A stretch of 64,000 nucleotides of DNA from Sciurus carolinensis (taxonomy: Eukaryota > Chordata > Mammalia > Rodentia > Sciuridae): contig NC_062232.1 in assembly GCF_902686445.1 (NCBI RefSeq), positions 15,111,105 through 15,175,104 of the forward strand, written 5' to 3'. Of the stretch, positions 9,843 to 24,141 are shown piece by piece (within the stretch, counting starts at the first letter, position 1; each line of letters begins with the position of its first letter). The translations under genes were made by a program, and so were the position numbers. The notes below the pieces were generated by a model that had not been told where the DNA came from, searched no databases, and worked only from the letters and a program-made list of their open reading frames with translations.

Positions 9843-9985
9843 AGAATATTTATTTTATTTTTTATTTGTTATGTTTTAATTAGTTGTACATGACAGTAGA
9901 ATGCATTTATGCATTTTGATAAGTCATACAAAAATGGAGTATAATTTTTCATTTTTCTGATTATACATGTTGTAGGATCACATGG
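9843..9985 (-). mobile_element. L1 3' end, split by the provirus
   Basis: The plus strand starts with a T-rich stretch and then GTTTTAATTAGTTGTACATGAC, the reverse complement of a rodent L1 3' UTR. The element resumes after the retroviral insertion at 16427, which shows that the provirus entered a pre-existing L1. The last six bases (9980-9985, ACATGG) are the left copy of the retroviral target duplication. Confidence 0.75.
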
Positions 9986-10081
9986 TGTCAGAATTATCAG
10001 CCAGGAGGGGGGGGGAGGGGCGCTGCTGCTTATTGTAAAGGTCAGAATGTTCTCAGAATGAGAACTTCTTGGTCCCTGACA
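9986..10081 (-). repeat. 3' LTR of the provirus, 96 bp
   Basis: It starts TGTCAGGGACC and ends TTCTGACA on the minus strand, so it has TG...CA ends. It is bounded by the target duplication on one side and directly by the polypurine tract on the other, so the short length is not a boundary error. It holds a 17-bp inverted repeat GTTCTCATTCTGAGAAC (10049-10065), one AATAAG polyadenylation-like hexamer (10029-10034) and a C-rich tract. No TATA box is visible. Differences from the other copy are at 10003, 10006 and 10021. Confidence 0.92.
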
Positions 10082-10095
10082 TTTCCCCCTTTCTT
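10082..10095 (-). other. polypurine tract
   Basis: The minus strand reads AAGAAAGGGGGAAA immediately before the 3' LTR. In retroviruses this RNase H-resistant purine run primes plus-strand DNA synthesis. Its position fixes the LTR start at 10081. Confidence 0.9.
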
Positions 10096-10194
10096 ATATA
10101 AAATTATTGACCATTTTTCGATAGCCATATTTTAAGGGGGTGATAGAGGTTATGTGGCGAGACGGGGGCACAGCTTGCCTGAACAGGTATAGGG

Positions 10195-10360
10195 CTGGAG
10201 TGACAATCCCTCGGGAACTGCGCCTGTCTTAGGTTGTCCGTGGCAGAGCAACATCCTTACCCGTCATTGGATAATGAGGCTCTGGCCCTCATTTCCTGTC
10301 TTAGGTTGGTATGAGCTCTCACGAATCTTACCCGTCATTGGCTGTCCAGTTCAGCTCACA
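10195..10360 (-). promoter_or_regulatory. constitutive transport element (CTE)-like RNA
   Basis: On the minus strand two copies of CCTAAGACAGG (plus-strand 10223-10233 and 10295-10305) alternate with two copies of CCAATGACGGGTAAG (10256-10270 and 10327-10341). This two-fold arrangement just upstream of the 3' LTR is that of the type D retrovirus CTE, where internal loops around AAGACA bind the cellular export receptor NXF1 (TAP) and let unspliced RNA leave the nucleus. The outer arms (CCCCTGTGAGCTG and CGCAGTTCCCGAGGG) sit where the terminal stem would be. I compared it by eye from knowledge of the family; folding was not computed. Confidence 0.82.
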
Positions 10361-10625
10361 GGGGTGATGGTCTTTTAAGATCACCATCACGATCCATCAT
10401 CTCCAGTCGATGGTAATGAACCTGAATAGGTTTCGCCTGTATAGCCTCAATTTGAGCTTTAAGAAAAGCCATGATCTTGTTGAATATCAAAGGACCTATA
10501 GATACAATAAGCAGCAAGCAAAGGAGGGGACCTTAGCAGGGTCCTCAAGCCCTGCATGGCTGTGGGAGAGCAGTGAACAGGCAGCCATTATCCAGAGAAG
10601 CAATGGTGTGCAGTCACAGGGTTTG
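10356..10625 (-). pseudogene. env: env remnant: transmembrane anchor and cytoplasmic tail
   Basis: After the pol stop only about 270 bp of env-like sequence remains. In one frame the minus strand gives a hydrophobic run (LLIVSIGPLIFNKI) followed by a charged amphipathic tail (AFLKAQIEAIQ) and a TGA at 10358-10356. This is the pattern of the membrane anchor and cytoplasmic tail of TM subunits from type D and RD114-like envelopes. A frameshift near 10520-10535 and a TAA slightly upstream break even this stub. The surface subunit, fusion peptide and ectodomain are absent, so no envelope can be made. Confidence 0.75.
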
Positions 10626-12410
10626 TCATTCAGGGGGTTTTTCGCATAGATTGTCGGCTGCATCTATAAGAGAGGAAGATTCATCCTCAGGGGGAAGGTT
10701 CCCGTCCCTGGGTTGTGGTAAATCATTGACCTGTTTGACCAGGCGTTCTGGTAACCATCTTGGGGCTGCTTGTTCTTGATCTAAAATACAAGCTGAGCCT
10801 CGTCCCCAAATGAGGACGGGATCTGGGCCTTTCCATTTATTTGTTAAAGGATCGCGCCACATAACAGATGGGTGAGCAGAATTAGAAGAGGGATGCCAAT
10901 GTCTGTCTGCGGTCGAATGTCCTTCATTGTCTAGGGTAAGAAAGTTAAGAGCAAATAATGCATGATTAAGGCGATCCCTGGGAGTGGTCAATGCAAGGGA
11001 AGAGGCCTTAAGGTGGGTAAGCCAGGTTTTTAAGGTGAGGTGTGCACGTTCCACAATGCCTTGACCTTGAGGGTTATATGGAATTCCAGTAGTATGAGAG
11101 ATTTGAAGAGTGGCACAAAACTGTTTGAACTTGGTACTGGTATATGCAGGGCCATTATCTGTCTTAATATGTGCTGGCTTTCCCATTATGGAAAAGGCTG
11201 AGACAAGATGAGAAATGACATCCTTGGTAGCTTCTCCGCAATGCGGTGATGCAAAAATAAAGCCACTAAAGGTATCTATGGAAACATGTATGTACTTTGT
11301 TTTCCCAAATTCAGGAAAGTGAGTAACATCCATCTGCCAAATCTGATTGGGCAGTAATCCTCGAGGGTTAACACCCAGATGTTGAATAGGAAGGGAGACA
11401 ACGCAAGCAGGACACGCTTTTACAATTTCCCTTGCTTGTTGCCTGGTAATTTTACAGAGTAACCGAAGGCTCTGAGAATTTAAGTGGTGAAGTTTGTGTA
11501 AATCTGTGGCCTCTTGGATGGATCCAATAAGAACTGGGAAAAGGGACCGAGTGGCTGCATCAGCCTGAGCATTACCCCGTGATAGGGGACCGGGAAGATC
11601 AGAATGTGCTCTAATGTGTCCTAAGAAAAATGGATGTTTTCTAGCCTGAATTAGTTGTTGAAGCTGGTTAAACAAAAAGGCTGCGTTGGAGGAAGCCTTA
11701 ATGGCGGGTGAAATCTCCAATAGGGGCACAGAATGGGCAATGTAAGCACTGTCTGTATAAATATTAATAGGTTTATCAAAAAATGTCATAAAGACTTGTG
11801 TTATAGCAAACAATTCTACAAGCTGTGCTGATGGATAAGCAGTGTCAAAGGTGGTAGGCTGATTATCAACAACAAAGGCTGCACGGCCATTGCTGGAGCC
11901 ATCTGTAAAAACAGTAAGGGCTTGTGGAATAGGAGCCTTCCGAGTAACCCGAGGAAAAATAAATGGATGTAACTGAGCAAAATGCAAAAGGGGGTCATTG
12001 GGAAGGTGGTTATCAATTATTCCCAAAAAGCCTGATAGAGCAATACCCCATTCATCCCTCGTCTGTAGCAAAAATTGGGTTTGATCCTTAGTGTATGGAA
12101 TCAGAATGTTATCAGGGTCTTTGCCAAAATGTTGTCGAGAAAGCAAGCGACCTTTAATAATGATAGAAGCTACCTGAGCAGGATAGACAGCAATAACTTT
12201 AGAGGATGTGGCGGGCAAATGAACCCAGAGCAAGGGGCAACCCTTATTTTTAAAATGTGGATCCCGCTGCCAGAATAGTCCCGTGGGTGTATGAGGGGTG
12301 TGTAATATAACCAAAACCAAAGGAAGGTTATAAGATATTTGTGTAACAAATTGTTGAGCGATGGCTTCTGTGACTTGAATTAATGCTTGCCGTGCCTCGG
12401 GAGTAAGCTC

Positions 12411-12413
12411 TCA
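12411..12413 (-). other. in-frame TGA interrupting pol
   Basis: This is the only stop in the pol frame between the frameshift site and the natural end. The first segment carries the RT fingers and palm; the second starts in the connection region and holds RNase H and integrase. Confidence 0.9.
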
Positions 12414-13291
12414 AGGAGAAGAAGGGTCAGAATCTCCCCTTAAAATATCATTAAGAGGCAAAAGCACATAGGTGGGTAGTTTTAAATATGGTCTTAGCCA
12501 TTGGATATCCCCTAGTAGTTTTTGGAAATCGTTAAGAGTGTGGAGATGGTCCACACGCAATTGTATATTAGGGATTTGAATTTGATTAGTTTGAAGTTTG
12601 AGGCCCAAGTAGGTGTAGGGGTCCTGTGTTTGAACCTTATCAGGGGCTATCTGAAGTCCCAAGGCAGTAAGGGCTTTATAGAGATCCAAATAACAATTGT
12701 TAAGATCATAGGTATTAGGTGCAGCAATTAACAAATCATCCATATAATGTAATATATAAACTTGTGGCCACCGCTCTCTCACAGGGTCTACTGCTTGAGC
12801 AACATATTTTTGGCAAAGACTAGGGCTGTTAGCCATACCCTGGGGAAGGACCTTCCATTGAAATCTTTGCATAGGGCCCTGAAAATTGATGCGGGGGAGG
12901 CTGAAAGCAAAATAGGGTCTGTCATCAGGATGTAAAGGAATAGTAAAAAAGCAATCTTTTAAGTCGATGACCATTTTATAATAGTCCCTAGGAATAGCTA
13001 CCGGTGTAGGGATGCCTGGCTGTAATGCCCCCATCGGGCGCATAACCTTATTGATAGCGCGCAAATCCTGTAAAAGGCGCCATTTGCCTGATTTCTTCTT
13101 AATAACAAAAATAGGAGTATTCCAGGGTGAGGTTGAGGGTTCCACATGGCCGGCTGTCAACTGTTCCTGTACTAACATGGAGGCAGCCTCTAATTTTTCT
13201 TGGGTAAGGGGCCACTGATCCACCCACACAGGAGTTTGAGTTTCCCAAATAATTTTGTCTGCATGGGGTACAGGAGGGTCAGGGACCGACA

Positions 13292-14245
13292 CTAAAAATC
13301 CAAATACCCAAGTCCAAATTTGTCTGTTTTTTGTATGGGCTGTACAGGCTCAACCTGTCCTTGTCCTAGCCTCCCAAGGCCTGTACCAGGGATAAAGCCC
13401 ATACGAAGCATTTGATGAGTGACTAAAGAGTCGGGACTAGCAAGAATAACTTTCATTTGGCTTAGAATGTCTCGTCCCCAAAGGTTGACAGGGAGATCAG
13501 GAACAACGAAGGGGGTAACGGTTCCTTTATTCCCTGTGTTATCTTTTGTGTCAGTCCAATTAAGCACCCTGGAGCTAACTAAGGGGTTTCTTGACTGCCC
13601 TATTCCTTTAAGGTCAGTTAGTGATGAGGTGAGGGGCCATTCTGATGGCCAATATTTTTGAGAAATAACTGTGGCGTCCGCACCAGTATCTAGGATCCCT
13701 TGGAATTTCTTTCCTTCAATAAATAAGGTAAGAGTGGGTCTTTTGTGGGAGATAGGTTGGACCCAATACACATCAGAGGAACCTAAAGAGGCTGTGTTTC
13801 CTGGTGAATTTCCTGAATTGAGGGGAAGGAGTATTAATTGTGCAATTTTTGTTCCTGCAGGGATGGCAGCTACTCCGTTAACAGCTGTGGCCAGTATTTT
13901 AATTTCTCCAGTGTAATCATCATCAATGATGCCAGGGAAGACCTGAACACCTTGTAAGGTGGTAGGAGCTCTCCCAAGAATAAGAGCACACATATGAGGT
14001 GGAGGGGGGCCTACAACCCCAGTGGGTATTATTTGGGGTCCTTGCATAGAGTCTAATATTGTATCGGTGGAGGCACAGAGGTCCAATCCTGCGCTGCCTG
14101 GGGTAGCACGTTGGAGGGAGGTGATTGTGGAGAAGGACAGGGAGCCTGGATTGGGTTGGGAGTCTGAGAGGGAACAAACCTTATTGCCCCTGGGTTTGCT
14201 CTGGGGGTGGTCGGGGCCAGGGGCTGGCCCCGAGAGGAGTTTCCC
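13292..14245 (-). CDS. pro: pro: dUTPase-protease-G-patch frame, expressed by -1 frameshift
   Basis: The frame is open from the gag-pro slip site (14245-14239) to a TAG at 13294-13292, about 316 codons. It has no ATG of its own at the start, as expected for a frameshift-expressed segment. First comes a dUTPase domain (GSAGLDLCA, DDYTGEIK, GTKIAQLILLP), which in betaretroviruses limits uracil in viral DNA. Then comes an aspartic protease with the active-site triplet in LDTGADATVI and the GRDIL motif; it would cut Gag and Pol as a dimer. The C-terminus is a glycine-rich G-patch (MGFIPGTGLGRLGQG), also typical of betaretroviruses. All visible catalytic motifs are intact and no stop or indel is seen. 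The order dUTPase-PR in this frame separates it from lentiviral and gammaretroviral layouts. Confidence 0.92.
   Translation of the reverse strand, partial: GKLLSGPAPGPDHPQSKPRGNKVCSLSDSQPNPGSLSFSTITSLQRATPGSAGLDLCASTDTILDSMQGPQIIPTGVVGPPPPHMCALILGRAPTTLQGVQVFPGIIDDDYTGEIKILATAVNGVAAIPAGTKIAQLILLPLNSGNSPGNTASLGSSDVYWVQPISHKRPTLTLFIEGKKFQGILDTGADATVISQKYWPSEWPLTSSLTDLKGIGQSRNPLVSSRVLNWTDTKDNTGNKGTVTPFVVPDLPVNLWGRDILSQMKVILASPDSLVTHQMLRMGFIPGTGLGRLGQGQVEPVQPIQKTDKFGLGYLDF
13295..13301 (-). promoter_or_regulatory. pro-pol -1 ribosomal frameshift heptamer
   Basis: The minus strand reads G GAT TTT in the pro frame, directly followed by the pro stop TAG. A -1 slip continues into the pol frame (GGA TTT TTA GTG). 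The layout is close to the GGAUUUA site known at the pro-pol junction of mouse mammary tumour virus. Confidence 0.8.
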
Positions 14246-16173
14246 GAGAAGTTAGAGGGAATAGGCTGTCCAAGGGCATTGGTCTTAGATCTACACTCCT
14301 TGGCCCAGTGGCGACCTTTACCACATTTAGGGCAAAGGGTGAGCGGAGGTGGTTTAGTCCCTGTTTGAGGAGATATGGGTCCTTGACCCAGTTTCCCTGT
14401 TGGGCAGTCTCGCGCAAAATGGCCAGGTTGTTTGCAAGTAAAGCAAGTACGTGGGCCAGGGTTGTGAAGGGCCTTGGTGAAGGCGGCACCAATGGCGAGA
14501 CCCATGGCATGGGCTGTTCCTACCCCGGCACACAGCCTAATGAAGTCAGAAAGGTCCCCTTTATCTTTGTGGGGCCGAAGAACATCTTGACATATTGGGT
14601 TGGCATTTTCAAAGGCAAGATATTTTACAAAGGAGCTCTCGTTTTCACTTGGTCCAAGTAAGCGCTCCGCAGTTAGATTAAGCCGAGCAACAAAGTCACT
14701 GTAAGGCTCGTCAGGACCCTGACGAATTTTTGCTAGGGAGGTGGTGGCCGAGCCCTTTTGAGGGAGCCGTCTCCAAGCATGCAAACCAGCAGTTTGAACC
14801 TGTGCTAGGAGCCCAGTAGGAAAGCGTGCCTGTTTAGGGTTAGTATCAAATGGCGCATTACCCACTAGTTTAACATAGGTCCAGGATTTAGAGGAAGCCT
14901 TGGTTGAATTTTTTTGGGCAGTTTCCCGACAGTATTCCCTAAAGTCTGCGTTCCACAACAGGAAGTCACCCGCACTGAGGGTGGCTCGGGCCAAAAATTT
15001 CCAATCATTAGGGGTGAGCCACTGTGTACTATGGTTCTCTAGCAAGGCCAGTGTATAAGGTGCAGTGGGGCCATACTGTGTACAAGCCTTTTTAAGTCTT
15101 TCAAGAAAGCGGAGGCTCAGCCTTTTATAAGAACCAAGGGCTCCACTCTGTCCAGAGGTGGGCTCCTCCTCATCCCCTGATTCCTGGTCCTCCTCTTGTT
15201 CCCTCTCTGGTTCTACCTCTTGTTCCTCCCCTGATTCCTCTTCCTGACTTCCTTTTAAATTCTCTGCTTCAGTTTGTGCGGGCTGATCTGCTTGACTGCG
15301 AGTGACTGGAAAGGCAAGAACAGGCTGACCACGTGGCTTCACCTTACGAGTATTGAGGGGTCTTGGGCCAGTTTGTGTTAACTCCGTGCCCAAGGCCAGT
15401 GAGCGAAGCTCGGCATCAAGGGCTTTTAGTTCTTTTAAAAGTTGGATTTGTTCCCGCCTATGTTGGAGAGACTCGCGTAAAGGGGTTAGATTAGGCAAGG
15501 GAAGTGGGGAAAAAATGTCTGGGGGGGCAGTAGGTCCCTGAAGGGCCGGAGCACGAAAGGCAGGGGGTGTATAAGTGGGAAGTGGATTTTTAAGAGGTGG
15601 CAGGTCTGGAGAATGGTGTTGAGCCGCTGCCCCCTCCAGGGTAGCCTCCTCCTCTGGGGTCACGTCATCATAGGGATTTAAAACCGGATAAATCTTAGGG
15701 GGACTTTTAGGGGACTTTTTTGGTAAGGTGGGGTCTGGGAGGTTCCCGGGGTCTGGGAGGGTCCCAGGGTCCTGAGAAGGCTGAGTAGGGGGCATATGAA
15801 TACTAACCGAAGGGCATGCCGATGGGGGGCGAGAGGTGGATTGCATTGCCTGCTCCCCAATCTTTACAAGTTTTAAAGTACCACTGTCAAAGGGTGAGCT
15901 TTTAAGAATCTCATTAATTAAATTCCAATAAGAAAAGGCAGTGACAGGCACCTTTTGAGGACCAAAAGTCTCATAATAATCTTTGAGGCAGTCTCCTACT
16001 CTGAGCCACCTTTTACCATCAATTGACCCCTCAAGGGGAAACCAAGGACACAAATCCTCTATGTATGAAAAGAATGATCTTAAATCCTTTTTCTTAACAC
16101 GCGCTCCCCGAGTCTTGAGGGCCTCCTCGAGACCCGTCAGAAACAAATCATGTGACGAAACTGCTTGTCCCAT
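14053..16173 (-). CDS. gag: gag polyprotein, 706 codons, intact
   Basis: The ATG at 16173-16171 opens a frame of 706 codons. MGQ at the N-terminus is a myristoylation signal for the matrix domain (about 1-115), which has the CPWFP signature of type D matrix proteins. A proline-rich region follows (about 116-230) with a PTAP late-domain motif at 214-217 that would recruit TSG101; no PPxY is seen. A helical, probably coiled segment (232-262) and an acidic low-complexity stretch (about 310-338, mostly E, D, Q, S) precede or enter capsid. The capsid major homology region is at about 485-504 (QGPDEPYSDFVARL). Nucleocapsid has two CCHC zinc knuckles (C577-C590, C614-C627). The -1 slip to pro lies at codons 644-645. 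The frame has no stop or visible indel, so it could encode a full Gag. Confidence 0.95.
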   Translation of the reverse strand: MGQAVSSHDLFLTGLEEALKTRGARVKKKDLRSFFSYIEDLCPWFPLEGSIDGKRWLRVGDCLKDYYETFGPQKVPVTAFSYWNLINEILKSSPFDSGTLKLVKIGEQAMQSTSRPPSACPSVSIHMPPTQPSQDPGTLPDPGNLPDPTLPKKSPKSPPKIYPVLNPYDDVTPEEEATLEGAAAQHHSPDLPPLKNPLPTYTPPAFRAPALQGPTAPPDIFSPLPLPNLTPLRESLQHRREQIQLLKELKALDAELRSLALGTELTQTGPRPLNTRKVKPRGQPVLAFPVTRSQADQPAQTEAENLKGSQEEESGEEQEVEPEREQEEDQESGDEEEPTSGQSGALGSYKRLSLRFLERLKKACTQYGPTAPYTLALLENHSTQWLTPNDWKFLARATLSAGDFLLWNADFREYCRETAQKNSTKASSKSWTYVKLVGNAPFDTNPKQARFPTGLLAQVQTAGLHAWRRLPQKGSATTSLAKIRQGPDEPYSDFVARLNLTAERLLGPSENESSFVKYLAFENANPICQDVLRPHKDKGDLSDFIRLCAGVGTAHAMGLAIGAAFTKALHNPGPRTCFTCKQPGHFARDCPTGKLGQGPISPQTGTKPPPLTLCPKCGKGRHWAKECRSKTNALGQPIPSNFSGNSSRGQPLAPTTPRANPGAIRFVPSQTPNPIQAPCPSPQSPPSNVLPQAAQDWTSVPPPIQY
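14211..14245 (-). promoter_or_regulatory. gag-pro frameshift signal: GGGAAAC plus stem
   Basis: The heptamer G GGA AAC is in gag frame at 14245-14239. After a 5-nt spacer (14238-14234) there is a perfect 10-bp stem with a 3-base loop: TCGGGGCCAG pairs with CTGGCCCCGA (14233-14211). A loop-downstream pairing to form a pseudoknot is possible with the later AGGGGC but was not computed. GGGAAAC is the usual gag-pro slip site of type D viruses. Confidence 0.9.
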
Positions 16174-16310
16174 GGTGCGTCACTCACCTTGCGCTGGCCT
16201 CAATTTCCTCCTGGATCTGACTCCCGGTCGCGTCCACCGAGGCGATCCCGAATCCCACTTGGCCAAGTCTTCCCCAGAGGGCAGCGTTCGCTTCTCAAAC
16301 AAAGGCTCGA
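16174..16310 (-). promoter_or_regulatory. provirus leader with canonical splice donor
   Basis: The leader lies between the primer-binding site and the gag ATG. A perfect 5' splice donor, AAG|GTGAGT, is located with the cut between 16188 and 16187, 14 bases before the ATG. In type D viruses such a donor makes the env mRNA. Packaging signals would also be here, but I cannot define them by eye. Confidence 0.75.
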
Positions 16311-16328
16311 GCCCCACGTTGGGCGCCA
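16311..16328 (-). other. primer-binding site for tRNA-Lys1,2
   Basis: Two bases after the LTR end the minus strand reads TGGCGCCCAACGTGGGGC, complementary to the 3' end of tRNA-Lys1,2, the primer of type D and several other betaretroviruses. It is a perfect 18-nt site as far as I can judge. Confidence 0.93.
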
Positions 16329-16330
16329 AC

Positions 16331-16426
16331 TGTCAGAATTATCAGCCGGGGGGGGGGGGGAGGGGTGCTGCTGCTTATTGTAAAGGTCAGAATGTTCTCA
16401 GAATGAGAACTTCTTGGTCCCTGACA
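16331..16426 (-). repeat. 5' LTR of the provirus, 96 bp
   Basis: This is the partner of the copy at 9986-10081, with equal length and three transitions. It has the same terminal TG...CA, the same 17-bp inverted repeat (16394-16410) and an uninterrupted run of 13 G on the plus strand (16348-16360). It directly abuts the primer-binding site region and the right target duplication. Confidence 0.92.
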
Positions 16427-16724
16427 ACATGGGTCATGCTGTCATATGTGTACATGAGGTAATAATGTCTGTTTCACTCTACTATCCTTCCTACCCCCAT
16501 ACCTCTTCCCCTCCCTTCACTCCCCTCTACCTAATCTAAAGTAACTGTATTTTTCCCTAACACCCCCCCCCCTTATTGTGAATTAGTATCCGCATAACAG
16601 AGAAAACATTTGACCTTTGGTTTTTTGGGTTTTGCTTATTTCATTTAGCATGATATTCTCCAACTCCATCCATTTACCAGCAAATGCCATAATTTCATTC
16701 TTCTTTAAAGCTGAGTAATATTCC

Positions 16725-18763: not shown

Positions 18764-18935
18764 GAGCCAGAAATGTAGCACATGCTTGAAATCCCATCTT
18801 ACTTGGGAGGCCGAGGTAGGAGGATCTCAAGTTCAAAGTCAATTTAGCAAGACTCCCTCAAAAGCTGAGGGGAGGGGCTGGGGATGTAGCTCAGTGGTAG
18901 AATGAGCCCAGGTTCAATCCCAGTACCATAAAAAA
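18764..18935 (+). repeat. B1-ID composite SINE
   Basis: The head (TTGGGAGGCCGAGGTAGGAGG) and tail (GGGGATGTAGCTCAGTGG) are present, with the head shortened in the middle. Its A-rich end is part of the tandem duplication described at 18918-19055. Confidence 0.8.
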
Positions 18936-19055
18936 ATATTGATAGATTGGATTACATCAAACTAAAAAGCAATCAACAGAGTATTCCATATCCCAGTACC
19001 ATAAAAAAATATTGATAGATTGGATTACATCAAACTAAAAAGCAATCAACAGAGT
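18918..19055 (+). repeat. exact 65-bp direct duplication, period 73
   Basis: A 65-bp stretch starting TCCCAGTACC is repeated exactly from 18991 after an 8-bp spacer (ATTCCATA). The unit spans the end of a SINE and the adjacent L1, so it arose after the SINE inserted. Confidence 0.9.
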
Positions 19056-23134: not shown

Positions 23135-23518
23135 TTATAGTTTAGGTATATGACATGTCCCCCAAAAGCTCATGTGTAAGACACTAAGAATTTTCAGAAG
23201 TGAAATGATTATATTATGAAGTGTAACCTAACACTGGTTTAATCCACTGATATGGATTAACTGGGTGGTAACTGTAAGCAGGTAGAGTATGGCTGGAGGA
23301 TATGGGTCATTGGGGTATGACTTCGGGGTTTATATTTTGTCCCTGGCGAATGGAACTCTCTTCACCATGATGTTCTGCCTTACCTCAGACTCAGAGCTAT
23401 GGAGTCAGCCTACCATGGACTGAACCTCTGAAACTGGGAGCCAAAATAAACCTTTCCTCCTTTAACCTGTTCTTGTCAGTTTTTTTGGCCATAGTGACAC
23501 AAAAGCTGACTAAAATAG
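23135..23518 (+). repeat. second MaLR-type LTR, diverged
   Basis: It shares the 3' pattern of the copy about 900 bp upstream (TGGACTGAACCTCTGAAACTG, then GAGCCAAAATAAACC and GACTAAAATAG) but is only partly alignable in the 5' part. Confidence 0.55.
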
Positions 23519-23607
23519 ACTGTTTTCCCACTCCTAATATTGATCTAAGGAAAAAAGTTAATTTCTCTAGATTCCATGGCTTTAAAATTTTTTTTGGCAT
23601 CTATGAC

Positions 23608-24141
23608 TATCGCGTTCCCTCTGCCCGCAGAGAGAGACACGACAAACGTCTGAAGCTTTGGAAGTTTATTGTGCACAGTCTTCCTTTCTTTCCCTCTTTT
23701 CTATCCCCTTCTCTCTTTTCTTTCTCTCGCTCTCTTTCCCTCTGCTTAACTCTCGCCTGCTCCGGTCGCTCCGCTTCTCCCGCTCGGCTCACGCCTGCTT
23801 CGGCCGCTCCGCTTCTCCCGCTCGGCTCTCGCCCTCGCTTGCACTCTTCTTCCTCGCTTCTACTCCTACTCTCAGCTTCTTCCTACTCTCAGCTTCTTAC
23901 TTACTCTCCCACCCACCAAGCTTATATACACTTCAACCAATCAGGGGAGAGCACACGAGGTAAACGCGCGGACAGCTGCAGGCATAGAATAGGTACACGA
24001 GGGGGGCATGCTCTAATCATTTCGTTAACTAGCCAATCATTGGAATTCGCTGGTTGTTTACTGTATAGCTGGCCGCTTTAGGCTCAGCACCAGGCGCCAT
24101 CTTGACCGTGCCCAAGGCTGGGGGTCCCGGAAACCCTGACA
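23608..24141 (-). mobile_element. solo LTR of a second betaretrovirus-like family
   Basis: A 534-bp GC-rich block is flanked by the 6-bp duplication TATGAC (23602-23607; 24142-24147). The minus strand starts TGTCAGGGTTTCC. It carries a GCCATCTTG-type YY1 motif, inverted CCAAT boxes, a TATATAAG box (23928-23921) and AATAAA (23670-23665). Between the TATA box and AATAAA, the R region is enlarged by repeats, including a 38-bp tandem unit. The distal end is TA instead of CA. No gag or pol sequence is attached, which fits a solo LTR left by recombination. The long R and the TATA/AATAAA layout recall IAP-like elements. Confidence 0.85.
23768..23828 (-). repeat. 38-bp tandem duplication inside the solo LTR
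   Basis: The string GCTCCGCTTCTCCCGCTCGG occurs at 23768 and again at 23806, with few differences in the connecting part. A second, shorter duplication (TACTCTCAGCTTCTT) lies at about 23870-23900. Confidence 0.85.

What the first reader, a model, noticed from the sequence alone, without database searches (positions are those of the whole stretch)
9986..16426. 96-bp LTRs on an otherwise well-organised betaretroviral provirus
Both LTRs are 96 bp. The ends are fixed independently by TG...CA termini, a perfect 6-bp target duplication, the Lys1,2 primer-binding site at one side and the polypurine tract at the other. Known betaretroviral LTRs are several hundred bases to over 1 kb. Because reverse transcription regenerates both LTRs from one RNA, the short form was already present in the RNA that integrated, or it arose in that cycle. 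There is no TATA box and only an AATAAG hexamer. Either a minimal LTR is transcribed and processed in an unusual way, or this copy was mobilised once from a template with an internally deleted U3.
Basis: partly seen in the sequence, partly recalled or inferred. Interest (0 to 1): 0.78.

Follow-up and report, generated by a model that had tools for sequence, protein, structure and literature searches.

The report
Proviruses with promoter-less stub LTRs
This endogenous retrovirus copy has very short ends most likely because, while it was being copied into DNA, the copying enzyme jumped too early to a look-alike site and left ends without a promoter; the same slip left at least seven such copies in this one rodent genome.

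Summary
In detail: an env-less, type-D-like endogenous betaretrovirus lies on the minus strand between two 96-bp LTRs and a 6-bp target duplication. The window's own genome could be searched and settles what the LTRs are. The family's ordinary LTR is about 393 bp with a TATA-like box and AATAAA. The 96 bp are only its first quarter, the 5' part of U3.

The cut lies where U3 carries a look-alike of the U5-end/primer-site joint (U3: CTGACAGT-A-TGGCGCC; true joint: GGGACAGT-TGGCGCCC). Two joint queries each returned the same seven proviruses of this form. All seven have two stub LTRs and a target duplication; six have the joint GACAGT|TGGCGCCC, one GACAGTA|TGGCGCCC. A tree of 43 leader/gag pieces scatters them among long-LTR copies (6 changes; one clade rejected, p=3e-5).

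Best reading: a recurrent reverse-transcription slip. Minus-strand DNA about six bases long moved from the true primer site to the U3 look-alike, bypassing R; in one copy the tRNA probably primed on the look-alike itself. Integrase accepted the look-alike end. The products are natural self-inactivated, probably dead-end proviruses, not a minimal working LTR.

The parts
16331..16426 (-). 5' stub LTR, 96 bp; equals the first ~94 bp of the family's ~393-bp LTR (U3 only)
9986..10081 (-). 3' stub LTR, 96 bp, 3 mismatches to the 5' one
9980..9985 (.). target-site duplication ACATGG
   Evidence: empty site shown by the joined flanks matching the repeat copy at 53337-53203
16427..16432 (.). target-site duplication ACATGG
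16329..16334 (-). GACAGT, the six bases shared by U3 (look-alike) and the true U5 end; the joint lies in or at the end of them
16311..16328 (-). primer-binding site, Lys1,2 type (tRNA name recalled)
16181..16190 (-). splice-donor-like AAGGTGAGTG before gag (by eye)
14056..16173 (-). gag, 706 codons, open; Gag_p10, Gag_p24, zinc knuckles
13295..14251 (-). pro frame: dUTPase, aspartyl protease, G-patch
12414..13349 (-). pol, first part (reverse transcriptase); a stop codon follows at 12411-12413
10629..12410 (-). pol, second part (RNase H, integrase)
10356..10532 (-). env remnant: open stretch of 58 codons like the C-terminal end of the gammaretroviral-type Env in P0194 (compared by eye)
10208..10349 (-). 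CTE-like element: two repeats that fold into a hairpin with two matching internal loops
   Evidence: not tested for function; covariation uninformative
10082..10095 (-). polypurine tract
   Evidence: the same tract precedes the 3' LTRs of relatives

Best explanation
The 96-bp LTRs are stubs made during reverse transcription of an ordinary long-LTR member of a multicopy env-less betaretroviral family. About 94 bp into U3 the family carries a look-alike of the U5-end/primer-site joint: CTGACAGT, one A, then TGGCGCC. Steps: (1) tRNA-Lys primes at the true primer site and about six bases of the U5 end are copied (inferred). (2) This tiny minus strand moves too early to GACAGT in the 3' U3 instead of moving at R (inferred from the joint). 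(3) The minus strand runs through U3 nt 94-1 and the body; plus-strand DNA from the polypurine tract copies the stub plus the tRNA part and transfers to the true primer site, so both LTRs are the same stub (follows from the standard scheme). (4) The end CTGACAGT is a normal-looking CA+2 end; integrase uses it and a 6-bp duplication forms (sequence shown). (5) The product has no TATA-like box, R, AATAAA or U5 and should not be able to repeat the cycle from its own promoter (content shown, effect inferred). The slip happened several times independently; in one copy (C11) the tRNA probably primed on the U3 look-alike itself.
For: 36 of 40 LTR places examined carry a full LTR of 348-403 bp that begins with the stub sequence. 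True joint and U3 look-alike share GACAGT and TGGCGCC; 35 of 35 long LTRs with a readable motif have an A between them in U3, none reads GTTGGCGCC, so the common stub joint is not a plain copy of U3 but U3 up to GACAGT plus the true primer site. Two joint queries (40 scored of 213 and 40 of 256 candidates) returned the same 7 stub copies. 7 of 7 have two stubs of 92-97 bp and a duplication at their outer ends, which excludes deletion after integration and plus-strand switching. Stub copies are scattered: nearest neighbours of the window and of C1 are different long-LTR copies in two regions; 6 changes on a 43-row tree, bootstrap 6-7, at least 3 forced; one clade rejected at p 3.1e-5. GACAGT with TGGCGCC within 3 nt arose in 2 of 200,000 Markov samples of U3 (pattern chosen after the fact).
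Against: No intermediate, RNA or read was seen. One of seven joints (C11) keeps the A and its 3' LTR ends at GT or GTA, so more than one route, or a different single route, is needed. The tree has few strong branches (6 of 36 starred) and recombination between packaged RNAs could scatter the label. Counts come from capped lists (40 scored). The query asking for joints at the second look-alike did not complete, nor was a separate query for the A-type joint.
Confidence: 0.76

Rival explanations
1. All stub LTRs come from tRNA-Lys priming directly on the U3 look-alike TGGCGCC, with no first strand transfer; the A between GACAGT and TGGCGCC is lost in most copies.
For: Fits the C11 copy exactly: joint GACAGTA|TGGCGCCC and a 3' end not trimmed to CA. 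U3 has two TGGCGCC copies in tandem.
Against: Six of seven copies lack the A, and 35 of 35 long LTRs with a readable motif have it.
Confidence: 0.12
2. A heritable short-LTR lineage: stub proviruses are copied again through read-through transcripts from host promoters, using the 94-bp stub as the repeat for the first transfer.
For: Read-through RNA would carry the stub at both ends (reasoning only). Three stub copies (C1, C11, C10a) fall in one 5-row group of the tree with two long ones.
Against: One clade rejected, p 3.1e-5; label as scattered as shuffled labels (6 changes against a mean of 6.6); each of the seven has a long-LTR copy as near as or nearer than any stub copy over 900 nt, with two ties, C11 and C10a.
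Confidence: 0.07
3. Assembly artefact: LTR sequence was lost in the C-rich tract.
For: A C-tract of variable length lies in the stub and reads could not be seen.
Against: The cut follows CTGACA, not the C-tract; 36 of 40 examined relatives with the same tract are assembled at full length; seven copies have duplications directly at the stub ends.
Confidence: 0.02
4. A minimal but working LTR with an initiator and a variant poly(A) signal.
For: An initiator-like TCATTCT at nt 21-27 and AATAAG are present (initiator consensus TCAKTY in PMC3601003, passages).
Against: The same bases are U3 sequence upstream of the TATA-like box and AATAAA in the full LTRs; the initiator consensus is short enough to occur by chance.
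Confidence: 0.02

Closest known systems
ERV-PDRV.1-Cynomys ludovicianus (PMC7354474; abstract, passages, sections 17 and 25 seen)
   Same: Sciurid env-less gag-pro-pol betaretroviral family of similar size (6132 nt contig; here 6249 bp between LTRs), hundreds of near-full copies in prairie dog
   Different: Its LTRs were not definitively identified; its pro-pol PCR primers do not match the window with up to 3 mismatches, so the relation is open
[quoted passage not shown]
   Same: Type D betaretrovirus of a sciurid; 403-bp LTR with TATATAA and AATAAA, like the full LTR of this family in length and order
   Different: Has env, a tRNA-Gln primer site as reported, and a full LTR
MPMV/SRV, prosimian retrovirus 1 and Desmodus rotundus ERV
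   Same: Pol second part 54-61% identical; dUTPase and G-patch in pro; CTE-like element before the polypurine tract (CTE likeness recalled; description in PMC7551171, passages)
   Different: Full LTRs and env in these viruses (recalled); here env is a remnant and the LTRs are stubs
SERV-K/MER11 proviruses with U3 deletions (PMC11379458, passages)
   Same: Shortened U3 in a betaretrovirus-like ERV with a CTE
   Different: Inherited deletions inside U3 of 588-968-bp LTRs, R and U5 kept; here R, U5 and the promoter are gone and the form recurs
Self-inactivating (SIN) retroviral vectors (recalled)
   Same: Proviruses whose LTRs lose their promoter in reverse transcription
   Different: Engineered U3 deletion that keeps R and U5; here natural, U3's 5' part is kept and the rest is lost

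Membership tests
Endogenous betaretrovirus, type D-like | gag-pro-pol domains of betaretroviruses with dUTPase and G-patch in pro | tested here: met
Endogenous betaretrovirus, type D-like | Pol groups with MPMV/SRV-type viruses | tested here: inconclusive
   best named hits are Desmodus ERV, prosimian and simian retroviruses; no tree was made
Endogenous betaretrovirus, type D-like | lysine tRNA primer site | tested here: met
   sequence; match to tRNA-Lys1,2 is recalled, not computed
Endogenous betaretrovirus, type D-like | LTR of about 300-500 bp | tested here: not met
   96 bp in this copy; met by the family, 36 of 40 places 348-403 bp; LTR range from PMC3621094, passages
Endogenous betaretrovirus, type D-like | env | tested here: not met
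   only a 58-codon remnant; three LTR pairs 6.6 kb apart suggest env-less is common in the family
CTE of MPMV type | hairpin with two matching internal loops from a repeated motif, between env and 3' LTR | tested here: met
   but over 207 nt 10 of 200 shuffles fold as well and 11 relatives give 0 compensatory, 3 one-sided and 3 broken cells of 462
CTE of MPMV type | NXF1 binding and export activity | not testable with these tools
   none
Heritable short-LTR lineage | stub-LTR copies form one clade | tested here: not met
   6 changes on the tree, p-AU 3.1e-5
ERV-PDRV.1 | pro-pol primer sequences of the published family | tested here: not met
   no match with up to 3 mismatches; best ungapped matches no better inside the provirus than elsewhere in the window

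The most novel reading that the evidence does not exclude
The family's U3 carries a decoy of the LTR end plus primer site (CTGACA-GT-A-TGGCGCC-TA-TGGCGCCCA) that makes reverse transcription bypass R at a measurable rate (at least 7 germ-line copies, against 213-256 first-look candidates for the joint). The decoy may be the imprint of an older event of the same kind that became fixed in the LTR, and may matter by shedding promoter-less, hence silent and tolerated, copies.
Probability: 0.3. Interest if true: 0.75.

Novelty: new variant of a known kind. Interest (0 to 1): 0.62.

Why it matters
Minus-strand initiation and the first strand transfer are normally studied in test tubes and cell lines. 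Seven genomic products with base-exact joints would be a natural record of a transfer made after about six bases, of tRNA priming away from the primer site, and of which ends integrase accepts (CA+2 in six, GT or GTA in one). They also show that a provirus can have matching ends and a target duplication and still lack R, a poly(A) signal, U5 and a promoter. Such copies may escape LTR finders and copy counts (inference); the sciurid family ERV-PDRV.1 was published without identified LTRs.

Tried and rejected
Relatives were sought in viral contigs by LTR pattern and by integrase and in genome contigs: none. An antisense frame across LTR and leader was searched in the protein database, hoping for other copies' LTRs: none. 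A second promoter was considered: TATATAA just upstream of the polypurine tract (0.9% in Markov samples) might drive a neighbour in tandem; dropped when the full LTR with its own TATA-like box was found. A 14-nt inverted match to the LTR at 10503-10516 lies in the env remnant and was taken as chance. Dating by the LTRs (3 of 96; 3.5-7 My, interval 0.7-21, at assumed rates) is unreliable on 96 bp; with no frameshift in 5.8 kb of frames (expected 8 at that divergence under an assumed indel rate) and 0 of 449 differences to L035 the copy is probably younger. Rfam gave no match in the provirus at the families' thresholds and two weak ones below them. A premature plus-strand transfer was rejected because it would leave the 3' LTR long, and a deletion after integration because the duplications abut the stub ends. 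L024 and L044, whose LTR match stops at about 160 bp, are rearranged copies, not stubs.

Ten paper searches listed nothing on R-less stub-LTR proviruses; the library holds only open-licence PMC papers and my terms were few, so this does not show that it is unpublished.
Full report
What was claimed and what is there. The finding describes a betaretroviral provirus with 96-bp LTRs. It is there, on the minus strand. Both LTRs are 96 bp, differ at 3 positions without gaps, begin TGTCAG and end CTGACA, and are flanked by ACATGG. The joined flanks match another copy of the same host repeat at 53337-53203, 75% over 141 bp across the junction. Between the LTRs lie a Lys-type primer site, an open gag, pro with dUTPase, protease and G-patch, a pol with one in-frame stop, 58 codons of the end of env, a CTE-like element and a polypurine tract. 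BLAST of nine pieces and four protein frames found no other piece of the family in the window.

Relatives by protein. The second part of Pol is 85% identical to an unnamed metagenomic protein, 61% to Desmodus rotundus ERV, 54% to prosimian retrovirus 1 and 55% to simian retrovirus 1. The nearest named Gag is from Marmota flaviventris, 77%.

The family's real LTR. After seven unanswered tries the window's own assembly (2.8 Gb) was searched. The first 60 bases of the LTR gave 40 scored matches, all 100%, out of 1068 first-look candidates. I fetched all 40 with their surroundings. At 36 of 40 the LTR runs on to 348-403 bp and ends in CGGGACA or a variant; 16 of these are solo copies, each with a repeat of 5-7 bp at its ends by the script's count, 12 of them exactly 6. 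2 of 40 (L024, L044) are rearranged after about 160 bp. 2 of 40 are the two ends of one further provirus with 93-bp LTRs (L028/L029). The full LTR has AATAAA at nt 275 of 393 (L017) and a TATA-like box shortly before it (CATATAAATA in L039/L040; CATAAATA in L017). The window's 96 bp correspond to its first ~94 bp. So the short LTR is a piece of U3 only; R and U5 borders were not mapped and are inferred from the order of signals.

The joint. In the full LTR the stub is followed by GTATGGCGCC. Of 40 places, 3 had no readable motif and 2 were the short provirus; in the other 35 an A precedes TGG and none reads GTTGGCGCC. The true LTR end and primer site read GGGACAGT-TGGCGCCCAACG. The two stretches share GACAGT and TGGCGCC. 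In Markov samples of U3 such a pair turned up in 2 of 200,000 (pattern chosen after the fact). The window reads CTGACAGT-TGGCGCCCAACG: U3 up to GACAGT, then the primer site.

How many. A 60-base query across the stub joint gave 7 full matches and 33 that begin exactly at GACAGT, that is, ordinary joints (40 scored of 213). A second query with the other primer-site variant gave the same 7 and 33 ordinary joints (40 scored of 256). All 7 were examined: both LTRs are stubs of 92-97 bp up to CTGACA, with duplications ACATGG (window), GATTTT (C1), CTTGTA (C159), TCTCTC (C10a) and AGTTTG (C11), GAAAAC (C4) and GCATAT (C10b); all but the window's were read by eye from printed flanks. Six have GACAGT|TGGCGCCC. 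C11 has GACAGTA|TGGCGCCC, and its 3' LTR ends in CTGACAGT before AGTTTG (or in GTA before a 5-bp GTTTG), not at CA. The 36 ordinary joints fetched for the tree end in the normal U5 end, two with one changed base. These were chosen from the best-scoring rows, so other odd joints may exist among unscored candidates.

One origin or several. Over 245 nt of leader and gag start, the window is nearest to long-LTR L020 (0.4%) and the C1 stub copy to long-LTR L047 (0.4%). Over the 449 nt before the 3' LTR, the window equals long-LTR L035, and C1 shares three changes with long-LTR L039 that the window lacks. A tree of 900 nt from 7 stub and 36 long rows needs 6 changes of the label (bootstrap range 6-7, at least 3 forced by starred branches, mean 6.6 for shuffled labels); one clade is rejected at p = 3.1e-5, and at 2.7e-41 for the six with the common joint. 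Against this: only 6 of 36 inner branches are starred, three stub copies (C1, C11, C10a) sit in one 5-row group with two long ones, and recombination between co-packaged RNAs can scatter labels. A stub provirus has no R and should not pass on its stub, so scatter is what the mechanism predicts.

Mechanism. In the standard scheme (established knowledge) minus-strand DNA starts at the tRNA, copies U5 and R, moves to the 3' R, and copies U3. If it moves after about six bases to GACAGT in the 3' U3, the minus strand starts tRNA-ACTGTC and runs on into U3 nt 94-1. Plus-strand DNA from the polypurine tract then copies the stub plus the tRNA part and transfers to the true primer site. Both LTRs are the stub, the left one is followed by the true primer site without the A, and the right end is CA+GT, which integrase trims as usual. 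This predicts the six common joints exactly. Switching on the plus strand would shorten only the left LTR, and a deletion after integration would not put the duplication against CTGACA; both are excluded by the pairs. The C11 copy has the A, as expected if the tRNA primed on the look-alike itself. I place 0.76 on recurrent early transfer as the main route.

What it is not. It is not a minimal working LTR: the TATA-like box, AATAAA and U5 lie in the missing part. As far as the tree can say it is not a spreading short-LTR lineage. It is not a plain U3 deletion like those of SERV-K/MER11 (PMC11379458, passages), which keep R and U5 and are inherited.

The rest of the element. The CTE-like element was recognised from memory of MPMV. 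Its two repeats fold so that each half of one pairs with the other, giving two matching internal loops; a long stem-loop with two internal loops is how PMC7551171 (passages) describes CTEs. Against it: over 207 nt 10 of 200 shuffles fold as well, and 11 relatives are too alike to test it (0 compensatory, 3 one-sided, 3 broken of 462 cells). Three LTR pairs lie 6.6 kb apart, giving about 6.23-6.26 kb between LTRs against 6,249 bp here, so the env-less form is common in the family.

Known context. Type D betaretroviral LTRs are about 300 nt and type B about 1200, bat ones 300-500 with one exception (PMC3621094, passages). The prairie dog paper (PMC7354474; abstract, passages, sections 17 and 25) describes a virus with a 403-bp LTR and an env-less endogenous family of 6132 nt whose LTRs were not definitively identified; its primers do not match here. 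PMC3601003 (passages) finds AATAAA well conserved in retroviral LTRs. Ten searches of an open-licence library listed no report of R-less stub-LTR proviruses.

Limits. No reads, RNA or second species were available. Copy counts come from capped lists and are lower bounds. The query for joints at the second look-alike did not complete.

Noticed in passing
P0194: A metagenomic protein of 510 aa, cluster of 28 members, joins 110 residues 85% identical to the start of this Gag directly to a gammaretroviral-type Env: probably a related, internally deleted multicopy element.
   Followed up: partly
U3 of the full LTR, about nt 92-120, in L009-L048: U3 holds two PBS-like words in tandem (TGGCGCC-TA-TGGCGCCCA in the commonest form, 14 of 40 places), as if an LTR end plus primer site had once been copied into it. 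Origin unexplained.
   Followed up: partly
L009-L048, L060-L095: Two primer-site types occur in the family, CAACGTGGGGC and CAACGTGGTTG; the second does not match the tRNA end as I recall it, so the tRNA copy is not always the strand that is kept.
   Followed up: no
L049: The second stub provirus (C1) has the first 894 nt of gag joined to the last ~640 nt of pol, env remnant and CTE intact.
   Followed up: yes
L024, L044: Two LTR copies whose match breaks at about 155-166 bp; L044 seems to run into gag-like sequence (by eye).
   Followed up: partly
window 16331-16426, LTR nt 29-43: AGAACATTCTGACCT matches 10 of 12 positions of a glucocorticoid-response-like palindrome (consensus recalled); 5 of 2000 letter shuffles do as well. 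It is U3 sequence present in the full LTRs too.
   Followed up: no
window 18917-19055: A 73-bp unit duplicated in tandem with 100% identity.
   Followed up: no
window 23371-24078, + strand: A 708-bp open stretch, the longest outside the provirus, containing a GC-rich 38-bp repeat at 23750-23833.
   Followed up: no
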